Shown here in pieces: positions 20,441 to 24,215 of a stretch of 64,000 bases of DNA; the stretch's first letter is position 1; every line of letters starts with the position of its first letter. The stretch comes from Terriglobia bacterium. GTDB lineage: Bacteria > Acidobacteriota > Terriglobia > Terriglobales > Acidobacteriaceae. A program made the position numbers and the translations under genes. The notes below the pieces were generated by a model. The model saw only the letters and a list, made by a program, of their open reading frames with translations. It was not told the DNA's origin and did no database searches. Location: positions 62,001-126,000 of the forward strand of contig JAIQFD010000002.1 in NCBI GenBank assembly GCA_020073495.1. The letters are read 5' to 3'.

Positions 20441-20776
20441 CTAATGAAAGCCTTCCAAGAGCCAACGTCGAAGTGTCGGAAATCCGAATCTTAGGCATCT
20501 CCAACACCAGTTGAAGTACCGATCTGGATAGTTGTCCCAGTACCCAGGCAGGACAGGACCGGGTCGGTTATTGAAGGCGAGATCGATCCAAACGAGAACG
20601 TAGAGAACCGGGTAAACGAACGGGTGAAGGATGAGGATAGCTATGCTAACCAATAGACCAACCCCCGCGAGCCACCACCAAATGTAAGCTACCCAAAGAG
20701 CACCCAATACGAGAACAACAACGAGTCGAAGCGCAAACCCGACCTGCTTCCGAAATTCCGGTACTCGGCTCTCCAT
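20441..20776 (-). CDS. Small membrane protein, unknown
   Basis: 111 residues with two or three transmembrane segments (residues about 15-65: LRLVVVLVLGALWVAYIWWW, GVGLLVSIAILILHPFVYPV). A Trp/Tyr/Arg-rich tail follows, YWDNYPDRYFNWCWRCLRFG. No family is recognised. ATG 20776 is chosen; GTG 20809 extends the frame by 11 residues, with a perfect AAAGGAGG placed too early for either start. It is upstream of the coiled-coil gene on the same strand with 139 bp between. Confidence 0.55.
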   Translation of the reverse strand: MESRVPEFRKQVGFALRLVVVLVLGALWVAYIWWWLAGVGLLVSIAILILHPFVYPVLYVLVWIDLAFNNRPGPVLPGYWDNYPDRYFNWCWRCLRFGFPTLRRWLLEGFH

Positions 20777-20904
20777 AGGCTTTGAGCGCGATGCGCACCT
20801 CCTTTGCACGTGCGGTCCCGGAGCCCAATTGGCAGACTTCCGTATTCATAGACTCCCTACTTCGTGAGGATAAGGACGAAGAGCAATTTGTTCTGTTTTC
20901 GGAA

Positions 20905-21055
20905 CAACGATGGGCGGGTGGCCCAGACACGTGAGAGGTGGCCCACACGAACGCAGCCCATGGAATCGCCGACATCGCCGGAATCGCCGGGAACGCCCCT
21001 TCGACTCCGCTCAGGGCAGACTGTGGCAGGCTACTTCCAGCCGCCGGCTGCGCGA
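20905..21055. repeat. Dispersed repeat R2, copy 1
   Basis: About 150 bp matching 23480-23632 in order: GGGTGGCCCAGACA, GCCCACACG, GCGCAGCCC or its variant, AATCGCCGG, CGCCGGGAACGCCCCTTCG, GCTCA and GGCAG, then a GC-rich GCCGCCGGCTGCGCG end. The copies have diverged but are collinear. Confidence 0.75.
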
Positions 21056-21081
21056 GAGGTCTGTGGTCGGCCCTCGTCAAA

Positions 21082-21372: not shown

Positions 21373-21446
21373 GCCTCCACCTCCAGTCGGTTCTAAACCT
21401 CACAAGGGCGGTGAGCAAGCCTTTTGGACAGTGGCGGGTGGCCCTC

Positions 21447-21461
21447 GATAAGAGCGAAGGC
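21447..21461 (+). repeat. Left subterminal inverted repeat of the IS
   Basis: GATAAGAGCGAAGGC, perfect inverse of 22781-22795. Confidence 0.9.
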
Positions 21462-21674
21462 GTTGTCAAGAGACACGTAACCGGTTCGGTGCGCAAGCAC
21501 CGAGTTGTTCGTCCGTGGAGTGAGGTCTGAAGCCGTCTGGCAGATTCCACGTTACGAATCATCCTGCGGTCGTTGCACCAACCATCGATTCGGGCCTGAC
21601 TGCGCCCATGATTCTTCTATGCGGACATCCCGCCCTGGTGCGGGATGCGAGAGCGCCCAATCAACACCTACGGC
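21462..21674 (-). ncRNA. Candidate bridge/seek RNA region of the IS
   Basis: 213 bp of non-coding sequence between the transposase stop and the inverted repeat, on the transposase strand. It holds an 8-bp hairpin (CATCCCGC / GCGGGATG, 6-nt loop, 21626-21647) and a 7-bp hairpin (TCGGTGC / GCACCGA, 4-nt loop, 21486-21503). Known: IS110-superfamily elements encode a guide RNA in a non-coding end, downstream of the transposase in the IS1111 group. The stretch CCAATCAAC at 21657-21665 also occurs at the right junction (22795-22803), so an RNA from the minus strand could pair with it. RNA boundaries are not known. Confidence 0.5.
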
Positions 21675-22715
21675 CTAGCTTGCGCCGGCCAGGGCCACCC
21701 GCGGGCTGCTCTCGATGGCAACGCTCTCCGGATGCGGGTTCTTGTTTCTCAACATCCAGTAGAGCTTGACCGCCAACTTGCGCGCCGCCGCCACCTTGGC
21801 CACCTGTTTCGGGCGGCAGTGGCAGCGGTGCAGATAGTCGCGACGAAACTCCGGGTCGTAGCGAATCGCGGTATGCGCCGCCTCCACCAGCAGCATGCGC
21901 GTCATGCGGTTGCCCTGTTTGCTGATCGCTCCCAGCTTCTGCCGCCCCGCCGAACTGTGCTCGCGCGGGATCAGTCCCAGGTAGCTGGCCACCTGCTTGC
22001 CGCGCGGGAAGCGGGCGACGTCCCCGATGGTCAGCACGAAGGCCAGCGCCGTGTTCGGTCCCACTCCCGGCTGGGTCATCAGCAGACGGGCGCTCGGGTC
22101 CTGCTGGGCGGCCTCGGCCACCGCCCGATCCAGCGGTGCGATCTGCTGGTCCAACGAAGTCAACAATCGGAGCAGGTCTTCCCGCCGCCGCGCTGCCCAG
22201 GGCGCCAGCGGCAGCGCTCGCAGCGTCTCCATCCCGGCCTCGCTCCACAGCCTGCCTTTCTTCTGCACTCCCTGGTTCATCGCCAAGTGCTGCAGACCGT
22301 TCTTCACCCGGGCGCGGATCTCCACCAGCTTGTGGCGATGGATCAGCAACTGCCGCAAGTCGCGCGCCGCGCGGTCCGGCACCCACAACCGCGGAAAGCG
22401 CCCTTCCACCAGCAGCTTCAGGATGTGCGCCGCGTCCCGCCGGTCGGTCTTCTGTTTCCGCACGTAGCTGGCCCGGATCTGGGCCGCATCCCCGATCCAC
22501 ACCTCGTGCCCCAGCTCCGTGAGCAGGTCCTGCAGCCAGTGGCAGTTGCCCGTCGCTTCCATCCCAATCAGAGCCGCTCCCGTCAGCGACCGGTAAAATC
22601 GTTCCGCCTCGCCGTCGCCATGCACCAGCTTCCGCTCCCCCGTCTCCCCGCTCTCCGGGTCCAGCCAGCAAATATGTTCCCAGCTGGGATGAAAATCGCA
22701 TCCTATAATCAGCAT
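21675..22715 (-). CDS. IS110-family transposase
   Basis: 346 residues, full length for the family. An N-terminal RuvC-like DEDD domain has D7 (GCDFH), E53 (GMEATGN) and D91/D94 (KTDRRDA). The C-terminal Transposase_20 domain has QPGVGPNTALAFVLTIGD and the serine-containing block PREHSSAGRQKLG. These recombinases act with a guide RNA to join element and target without duplication. AAGGAG lies 6 nt before ATG 22715. No frameshift or stop is present, so the element is potentially active. Confidence 0.95.
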   Translation of the reverse strand: MLIIGCDFHPSWEHICWLDPESGETGERKLVHGDGEAERFYRSLTGAALIGMEATGNCHWLQDLLTELGHEVWIGDAAQIRASYVRKQKTDRRDAAHILKLLVEGRFPRLWVPDRAARDLRQLLIHRHKLVEIRARVKNGLQHLAMNQGVQKKGRLWSEAGMETLRALPLAPWAARRREDLLRLLTSLDQQIAPLDRAVAEAAQQDPSARLLMTQPGVGPNTALAFVLTIGDVARFPRGKQVASYLGLIPREHSSAGRQKLGAISKQGNRMTRMLLVEAAHTAIRYDPEFRRDYLHRCHCRPKQVAKVAAARKLAVKLYWMLRNKNPHPESVAIESSPRVALAGAS

Positions 22716-22780
22716 CGAAGGCTCCTTCTTCCCCAGCGTCTTCAGACCTCAATCCAAAGACACGCTAGGGTAACGTCGGA

Positions 22781-22795
22781 GCCTTCGCTCTTATC
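22781..22795 (-). repeat. Right subterminal inverted repeat of the IS
   Basis: GCCTTCGCTCTTATC, perfect inverse of 21447-21461. The flank continues CAATCAACGC. Confidence 0.9.
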
Positions 22796-22852
22796 CAATC
22801 AACGCTTCGGACCCGGCTTAGAATAGTTTGAGGGGCTTCGGACGGAGGCCAA

Positions 22853-23192: not shown

Positions 23193-23456
23193 ATGCCCAA
23201 AAAGAAAATGCCCGCCAAACGGGGCAAGCGGGCGCTGGCCTGGCTGGAATCGTCCGGCTTCATCGGCTGGAGCTGTAAGGGCTGTTGGTGGCTACGCCCG
23301 TCCCGAAGCTTTCTAGCTGCCGCCAAAACGCCCTCGCGGGACACTCAAGATGCATTCAATAAGCACGATTGCAATCGGTATCCGAAGCACGCGAAAAAGC
23401 GCAAGGACTCCAGCCAAGCCGCTGCGCCAATCGTTCCCGAAGCGACGAAGCACTAG
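23193..23456 (+). CDS. Small basic Cys/His protein, putative zinc binder
   Basis: 87 residues. A lysine/arginine-rich start (MPKKKMPAKRGKR) is followed by CKGCWW and, 25 residues on, AFNKHDCNRYPKH. This CxxC ... HxC spacing could bind one zinc. The C-terminus is Ala/Lys rich and probably disordered. Upstream is AGGA 7 nt before ATG 23193. It follows the zinc-ribbon gene by 106 bp in the same direction, so they may be expressed together. No function can be assigned. Confidence 0.5.
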   Translation: MPKKKMPAKRGKRALAWLESSGFIGWSCKGCWWLRPSRSFLAAAKTPSRDTQDAFNKHDCNRYPKHAKKRKDSSQAAAPIVPEATKH

Positions 23457-23479
23457 GCCTTAAGTTCCTCCTCAAATCG

Positions 23480-23632
23480 TGGGAGGCCCAGACAAGTGAG
23501 GGGGTGCCCCACACGGGCGCAGCCCCTGGGATCGCCGGAATCGCCTGAATCGCCGGGAACGCCCCTTCGGCTTCGCTCAAGGCAGGCTAGAAACCGGGGC
23601 TGCCCTTCCGCCGCCCGCTGCGCGGGCTCCCG
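23480..23632. repeat. Dispersed repeat R2, copy 2
   Basis: Collinear with 20905-21055: GGCCCAGACAAGTGAG, CCCACACG, GGCGCAGCCC, ATCGCCGGAATCGCC, CGCCGGGAACGCCCCTTCGG, TTCGCTCAAGGCAGG and a CGCCGCCCGCTGCGCG end. Confidence 0.75.
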
Positions 23633-23636
23633 ATTC

Positions 23637-23935
23637 CACGAATTCCTCTGTGCGCTCCGTGCCTCTGTGGTGAGATTTTCTTCGTGCCCTTCGTGCCTGC
23701 CCTTGTGTCCTTTGTGTTGAATCTTTGATTTTTCTAGTTCCTACCGCGTCCTCTGCGCCCTCTGCGGTGAAATGGTTGTCGGTCGTTTGCTGTGCGTGTA
23801 GTGCGTCTCTGTGGTGAGATTTCCTTCGTGCCCTTCGTGCCTGCCTTCGTGTCCTTCGTGGTGAGGCGTGTTGCCGACGACTTTTCTCTGCGCGCTCCGT
23901 GCCCCTGTGGTGAGCTTTTCTTGACCGCCGGCTCC
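23637..23935. repeat. Array of degenerate GTGCCTCTGTGGTGA-type repeats
   Basis: At least four imperfect copies of a phrase built from TGCGCTCCGTGCC, TCTGTGGTGAGATTT, CTTCGTGCCCTTCGTGCC and GTGTCCTT(C)GTG lie between 23645 and 23930. The minus strand gives a spurious open frame with repeated HHRGTER-like words. Related single copies, sometimes inverted, occur at 44475-44512, 48830-48855 and 63401-63455. Confidence 0.8.
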
Positions 23936-24215
23936 GGATATACTTATAGCTCCCAGCTATTGCAAGAACTTTATTTTTCCTCCTCCTAACCCCCTGATTC
24001 CACACGTCTTTCCACTGCCCCATTCAGCGGACCTTCCTCTCCACAGTGCTACTCTGGATGTGTCGGGTGCATTTCCGCCCAGCTACTAGCTACCAGCTAC
24101 TAGCTACTGCTCTTTGACATATCTGACATATTTCCGCCCCTAACTCCTTTGTTTCGACATATCGAGGGGGAGGGGGAGGGGGGCCTGATCTGTCGCGGCT
24201 CGCCTCTGCGTCTTC
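23936..24215. other. AT-richer intergenic stretch with short repeats
   Basis: Contains TACTAGCTACCAGCTACTAGC (imperfect short repeats near 24085-24110), TGACATATCTGACATATTTC and a G-rich run near 24165-24182. No gene recognised. Confidence 0.45.

What the first reader, a model, noticed from the sequence alone, without database searches (positions are those of the whole stretch)
21447..22803. IS1111-like element whose 3' non-coding end contains a match to its own right junction
Seen: a complete DEDD transposase, perfect 15-bp subterminal inverted repeats, and a 213-bp non-coding 3' end with two hairpins. Nine bases (CCAATCAAC) in that end (21657-21665) recur exactly at the right junction (22795-22803). 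Known: IS110-superfamily recombinases use a structured guide RNA from a non-coding end, downstream of the gene in the IS1111 group. Inference: the minus-strand RNA could pair with the junction through GUUGAUUGG. A 9-base match can occur by chance.
Basis: partly seen in the sequence, partly recalled or inferred. Interest (0 to 1): 0.68.

Follow-up and report, generated by a model that had tools for sequence, protein, structure and literature searches.

The report
Jumping gene with guide inside recombinase
This is a mobile element of the IS1111 family that almost certainly makes an RNA to choose where it inserts; unusually, one of the two target-reading stretches of that RNA lies inside the last codons of the recombinase gene, so changing the target also rewrites the tail of the enzyme.

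Summary
The element (window 21445-22801, minus strand) is an IS1111-type insertion sequence. About 85 relatives define a covarying RNA module straddling the recombinase stop codon (97% of pair cells canonical; 12 of 15 pairs with double changes). Its internal loop carries two target guides. Both follow each element's own flanks (0 of 20,000 permutations as good). Two empty sites of a relative's insertion fix the ends and show no target duplication. Farther downstream, apparent donor guides match the circle junction. In six proteobacterial IS1111-group elements the guide lies 75-130 nt after the stop instead. In this clade retargeting changes the protein's C-terminus or even creates its stop codon; that tail is predicted disordered. 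No RNA was measured. Verdict: a new variant of a known kind (IS1111 seekRNA / IS110 bridge RNA).

The parts
21445..22801 (-). whole insertion sequence, 1357 bp, left end (TGATTGG-ATAAG) at 22801, right end (CTTAT-CGA) at 21445
   Evidence: ends of about 50 relatives; empty sites of a relative's insertion in two sister species show left flank joined to right flank without these bases
21675..22715 (-). DEDD recombinase gene, 346 aa
   Evidence: PF01548 and PF02371 above cut-off; catalytic D7, E53, D91, D94 and S255 in alignment A1; best fold match IS621 recombinase 8wt9, E 8.8e-15
21703..21714 (-). 5' arm of outer stem of the target-guide module (CGAGAGC A GCCC), inside the gene
   Evidence: covariation with 21648-21658, 9 of 11 pairs with changes on both sides
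21692..21702 (-). 5' target guide (GCGGGUGGCCC), complementary to right flank 21434-21444, inside the last codons of the gene; next base U 21691 pairs with the last base of the element
   Evidence: 11 of 11 pairs; own-flank permutation test 0/20000 over 50 elements
21672..21690 (-). apical hairpin between the two guides, contains the TAG stop (21675-21677)
   Evidence: 3 of 4 pairs with changes on both sides
21664..21669 (-). 3' target guide, matches left flank -1 to -6 (AAGCGT, two wobble pairs), followed by UGA(UU) 21659-21663 that matches the element's left end
   Evidence: per-position own match 0.91-0.67 at -1 to -5 against 0.66-0.40 expected; permutation 0/20000 over 46 elements
21648..21658 (-). 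3' arm of outer stem (GGGC GCUCUCG)
21608..21613 (-). proposed right donor guide AAUCAU, complementary to ATGATT of the circle junction (last A of right end plus TGATT of left end)
   Evidence: reads CAUCAU in 11 of 14 relatives whose left end is TGATG, never in 23 with TGATT (my reading of the listings); also pairs with a downstream GUGAUU/GUGAUG, so stem and guide roles are not separated
21578..21589 (-). proposed left donor guide AUCGAUGGUUGG, matches circle junction ATCGA|TGATTGG at 11 of 12 (one wobble)
   Evidence: AUC with right end TTATCGA in 25, AUA with TTATAGA in 11, one exception; permutation 0/20000; AGA with TTAGAGA in some more distant elements
21447..21461 (-). right subterminal inverted repeat
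22781..22795 (-). left subterminal inverted repeat; its inner part CGAAGGCTCC (22778-22787) also pairs with GGAGCCTTCG just before the ATG (22716-22725)
   Evidence: leader fold z -6.2; own-pair permutation 0/5000
21464..21469 (-). TTGACA, conserved 17 bp before GATGAT that forms only when the ends join in a circle (predicted junction promoter)
   Evidence: sequence; conserved in nearly all right ends
22740..22751 (-). leader segment UGAGGUCUGAAG, complementary 12 of 12 to the 3' non-coding segment 21521-21532
   Evidence: own-pair permutation 0/5000 over 48 elements
21521..21532 (-). 3' non-coding segment CUUCAGACCUCA, partner of 22740-22751
21434..21444 (-). right half of the target (GGGCCACCCGC), outside the element
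   Evidence: also flanks the second, decayed right end in this genome (L002:1501 ff.)

Best explanation
An IS1111-family insertion sequence that moves by an RNA-guided recombinase. A transcript through the recombinase gene and its 3' end, probably from the promoter formed when the ends join in a circle, is processed to a seekRNA/bridge RNA whose module begins about 40 nt before the stop codon. [quoted passage not shown] a second part downstream pairs with the circle junction. The element integrates without target duplication into ...GT|GGGCCACCCGC..., a dispersed repeat. Shown in silico: the fold, both target guides, the element ends, the overlap with the gene, covariation of the left donor guide. 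Inferred: that the RNA exists, is bound by the recombinase and works as in ISEc11 and IS621.
For: Fold: 97.1% of cells paired, 94 double-changed cells against 33 in shuffles and at most 12 in slid controls (also on 84 modules). Target guides: own flanks score 15.8 against 9.1+-0.48 permuted; left guide 0/20000 at all widths tried; 12 guide classes. Ends and lack of duplication: empty sites in G316 and G295. Guide in ORF: starts before the stop in nearly all; in L052 and L020 the guide itself supplies the TAA. C-terminus: fold ends near residue 330, residues 335-346 pLDDT < 50. Control: six other IS1111-group elements have the guide at +75 to +129. Recombinase fold: IS621/ISCro4. Guide order (top-strand complement first) is the order reported for IS1111 seekRNAs (PMC11187229).
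Against: No transcript or RNP data. A few elements fit poorly at fixed register (for example L072, L082, L088, L049, L068), some because flanks have been rearranged or ends are misassigned. The thermodynamic fold of the window copy alone is not unusual (z -0.96); the support is comparative. The window's own empty site was not found; no match to its flank at the locus in the genus mate. Relatedness inflates permutation tests, though 12 guide classes and double changes limit this. The right donor guide could simply be a stem.
Confidence: 0.87

Rival explanations
1. Ordinary IS1111 element whose guide RNA lies wholly in the 3' non-coding end; the match in the gene end is chance or protein-driven.
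For: Described IS1111 seekRNAs map downstream of tnp (PMC11187229); IS4321 and five others here fit that.
Against: The in-gene guide follows the right flank through 12 guide classes; the outer stem's 5' arm in the gene covaries; the protein tail varies in sequence and even reading frame while the RNA is kept.
Confidence: 0.04
2. The 9-base repeat is chance and there is no guide RNA function in the 3' end.
For: Several exact 9-mers occur in the same region by chance.
Against: Covariation of the left guide with the left flank in 46 elements and of the fold.
Confidence: 0.01
3. In addition to the guide RNA, the element carries a self-regulating switch: the leader hairpin hides the ribosome binding site and its apical part pairs with the 3' non-coding RNA, tying recombinase translation to guide RNA production.
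For: Leader fold z -6.2; inverted repeat:ribosome-site stem and leader:3'-end complementarity both exceed permuted pairs 0/5000; the 12-mer changes in concert in many relatives.
Against: The second complementarity could be a DNA-level internal inverted repeat bound by protein; the few mismatches are A:C or G:G as often as G:U, so RNA pairing is not favoured over DNA symmetry; weak in the more distant clades.
Confidence: 0.4
4. The copy in the window is a fossil that no longer moves.
For: Single complete copy plus one decayed right end in the genome.
Against: Open frame, catalytic residues, perfect repeats and a perfect 11-nt guide-flank match suggest recent activity; G167 has seven near-identical copies of a relative.
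Confidence: 0.3

Closest known systems
IS1111 family with seekRNA (ISEc11, ISKpn4, ISPa11; IS4321)
   Same: DEDD recombinase of similar length, sTIR with 7/3-bp extensions, no target duplication, guide order top-strand complement then bottom-strand match, predicted circle-junction promoter
   Different: the 5' guide and stem arm are inside the recombinase ORF; in IS4321 and five other elements measured here the guide starts 75-130 nt after the stop
IS110 group with bridge RNA (IS621, ISCro4)
   Same: recombinase fold; two-part RNA with target loop and apparent donor guides
   Different: RNA is at the 3' rather than 5' end, guides appear in reverse order (right before left) in both parts, long sTIR
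TnpB omega-RNA (reRNA)
   Same: guide RNA and nuclease coding sequence overlap (stated for TnpB in PMC11844463)
   Different: there, by my own knowledge, the guide lies outside the element and only the scaffold overlaps coding sequence; unrelated protein

Membership tests
IS1111 family | DEDD_Tnp_IS110 plus Transposase_20 domains, catalytic DEDD and Ser | tested here: met
   (D7, E53, D91, D94, S255)
IS1111 family | subterminal inverted repeats of about 11-17 bp | tested here: met
   15 bp perfect
IS1111 family | 7-bp left and 3-bp right extensions, no target duplication | tested here: met
   within-genome copies and empty sites of a relative; not tested at the window's own site
IS1111 family | long non-coding region downstream of tnp | tested here: met
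   21462-21674; but the guide module begins upstream of the stop
IS1111 family | seekRNA with top-strand complement 5' of bottom-strand match | tested here: met
   (sequence and covariation only)
IS1111 family | circular intermediate and RNA bound to recombinase | not testable with these tools
   only the predicted junction promoter TTGACA-17-GATGAT
IS110 group (IS621 type) | bridge RNA upstream of tnp, short or no sTIR | tested here: not met
   RNA module at the 3' end, 15-bp sTIR
IS110-type bridge RNA (as a mechanism) | donor guides complementary to the circle junction | tested here: inconclusive
   left donor guide covaries with the right end; right donor guide suggestive
Rfam families | match to any described RNA family | tested here: not met
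   none at E <= 1

The most novel reading that the evidence does not exclude
In a large acidobacterial clade of IS1111 elements the target guide is a translated sequence: each change of target rewrites, shifts or truncates the recombinase C-terminus, so ribosomes running to the stop codon and folding of the guide RNA compete on the same transcript, and together with the leader/3'-end pairing this sets the balance between recombinase and guide RNA.
Probability: 0.35. Interest if true: 0.75.

Novelty: new variant of a known kind. Interest (0 to 1): 0.58.

Why it matters
It shows that programmable guides of RNA-guided recombinases can be placed within coding sequence, so searches restricted to non-coding ends will miss half of the target code. 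It supplies about 12 naturally reprogrammed guide classes with their targets, apparent donor guides for IS1111, and a natural test of how a selfish element retargets itself without breaking its enzyme. The compact, covarying module is also a practical source of new programmable recombinases.

Tried and rejected
(1) Core 'GA' model (target ...TTGA|GGG...): rejected by empty sites, which lack TGA. (2) 9-mer as an independent signal: within chance. (3) 393-aa plus-strand ORF 21645-22826: antisense shadow of the gene, not pursued. (4) Empty site of the window copy in its genus mate: locus not found. (5) Rfam: no family. (7) Second IS1111-like family of the own genome (L005/L006): no clear guide match with the right flank assumed, so not used as a control. 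(8) Orphan guide RNAs found with the covariance model (L176, L179, L181, L183): look like 5'-truncated remnants, not mobile non-autonomous elements. (9) Main text of the two founding papers: no mention of a guide within the ORF; supplements and subscription papers were not searched, so priority is not proven.

Full report
WHAT IS THERE. The element lies on the minus strand: left end at 22801, recombinase gene 22715..21675, right end at 21445. The protein carries PF01548 and PF02371, the DEDD residues and the Ser of the C-terminal motif; its predicted fold matches IS621 and ISCro4 recombinases best. The genome (3.7 Mb, 8 contigs) has one complete copy and one decayed right end, L002, with the same right flank GGGCCACCCGCC. 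Titled relatives are Acidobacteriota MAGs.

ENDS. In about 50 relatives with both ends, bases outside TGATTGG...CGA vary between copies of the same element in one genome. For one insertion of a G167 element, two sister species hold the uninterrupted site, GCGGGACCC|GGGGCACCC in L135 and a near-identical one in L133. So the element is TGATTGG-ATAAG...CTTAT-CGA, the 7/3 extension reported for IS1111 (PMC11187229), with no target duplication. By analogy the window's target was GAAGCGT|GGGCCACCCGC. GTGGGCCACCCGC occurs 22 times exactly in this genome and 77 times with up to one mismatch, against 21 for the reversed pattern: a dispersed repeat, in line with other IS1111 elements that target repeats.

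THE RNA MODULE. An alignment of the gene ends showed a stem, CGAGAGCAGCCC...GGGCGCTCTCG, whose 5' arm is in the gene. In 34 diverse modules, 97.1% of pair cells are canonical and 12 of 15 pairs change on both sides; sliding the partner by one base drops pairing to about 40% (84 modules). Inside are, in order: an 11-nt guide complementary to the right flank, a variable hairpin (often holding the stop codon), and 5-6 nt matching the left flank followed by UGA. Tested against permuted flanks, both guides fit their own flanks better than any of 20,000 permutations. About 12 guide classes are present, two thirds of them with at least 8 of 10 pairs to their own flank at fixed register, against 4.6 on average across classes. 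Examples: L022 guide GAGUCAUCUUG with flank CAAGATGAC; L031 GGGGCUGGCCC with GGGCCAGCCCC; L081 GAAAUCGCCA with TGGCGATTTT.

THE GUIDE IS IN THE GENE. In the window the 5' guide occupies 21702-21692, starting 25 nt before the stop, and encodes part of PRVAL. Across relatives it usually starts 18 to 79 nt before the stop. In L052 and L020 the new guide contains the stop codon (GAGA-TAA-CGCG, GAGG-TAA-GGTG). One subclade reads the same RNA in another frame. The folded protein ends near residue 330 and residues 335-346 are predicted disordered. I read this as an open frame running on into a guide RNA gene, the tail being dispensable; that reading is inference. In IS4321, IS5708-type elements and elements of Pseudomonas, Komagataeibacter and Sinorhizobium the same search finds the guide 75 to 129 nt after the stop. 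The two founding papers place the RNA downstream of tnp and do not mention such an overlap in their main text.

DONOR SIDE. Further downstream, AUCGAUGGUUGG (21589-21578) matches the circle junction ATCGA|TGATTGG, and its third base follows the right end: AUC with TTATCGA (25), AUA with TTATAGA (11), one exception. AAUCAU (21613-21608) complements ATGATT and is CAUCAU in 11 of 14 elements whose left end is TGATG (listings). These look like left and right donor guides, in the reverse of the IS621 order; Durrant et al. [quoted passage not shown] The right donor guide may be only a stem.

LEADER. The 86-nt leader folds far better than shuffles (z -6.2): the left inverted repeat pairs with the ribosome-binding site. 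Its apical part is complementary over 12 nt to 21521-21532, and both complementarities exceed permuted pairs. RNA regulation and a DNA-level internal repeat are not separated. Joining the ends gives TTGACA-17 bp-GATGAT, a plausible circle promoter.

LIMITS. No RNA, RNP or transposition was measured. Permutations do not remove relatedness. A minority of elements fit badly. Priority of the in-gene guide rests on the papers held here.

Noticed in passing
L002:1501-1631 (own genome C3:93552-93682): Decayed solo right end of the same element family with the same right target flank GGGCCACCCGCC; nearby the repeat GTCTGGGCCACCCGCC occurs twice.
   Followed up: partly
own genome C4, L005 and L006: Two 95.8% identical copies of another IS110/IS1111-type element with left end ATTAATGAGATGGTCCGCCG, resembling the IS4321 end.
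   Followed up: partly
L176, L179, L181, L183: Guide RNA module without any recombinase gene (three of the four with a clear right end); apparently 5'-truncated remnants that could still supply RNA in trans.
   Followed up: partly
L068 (G167): A copy whose right flank is the guide RNA segment of another copy of the same element, suggesting recombination between copies.
   Followed up: no
L054, L067, L069, L070 (G167): Insertions sit at the end of short palindromes (e.g. CCCATGTCCC...GGGACAT|GGGGCACCC), a REP-like target.
   Followed up: partly
window 20646-21080 and 23356-24023: Dispersed repeats on both sides of the element, with many partial copies elsewhere in the genome.
   Followed up: no
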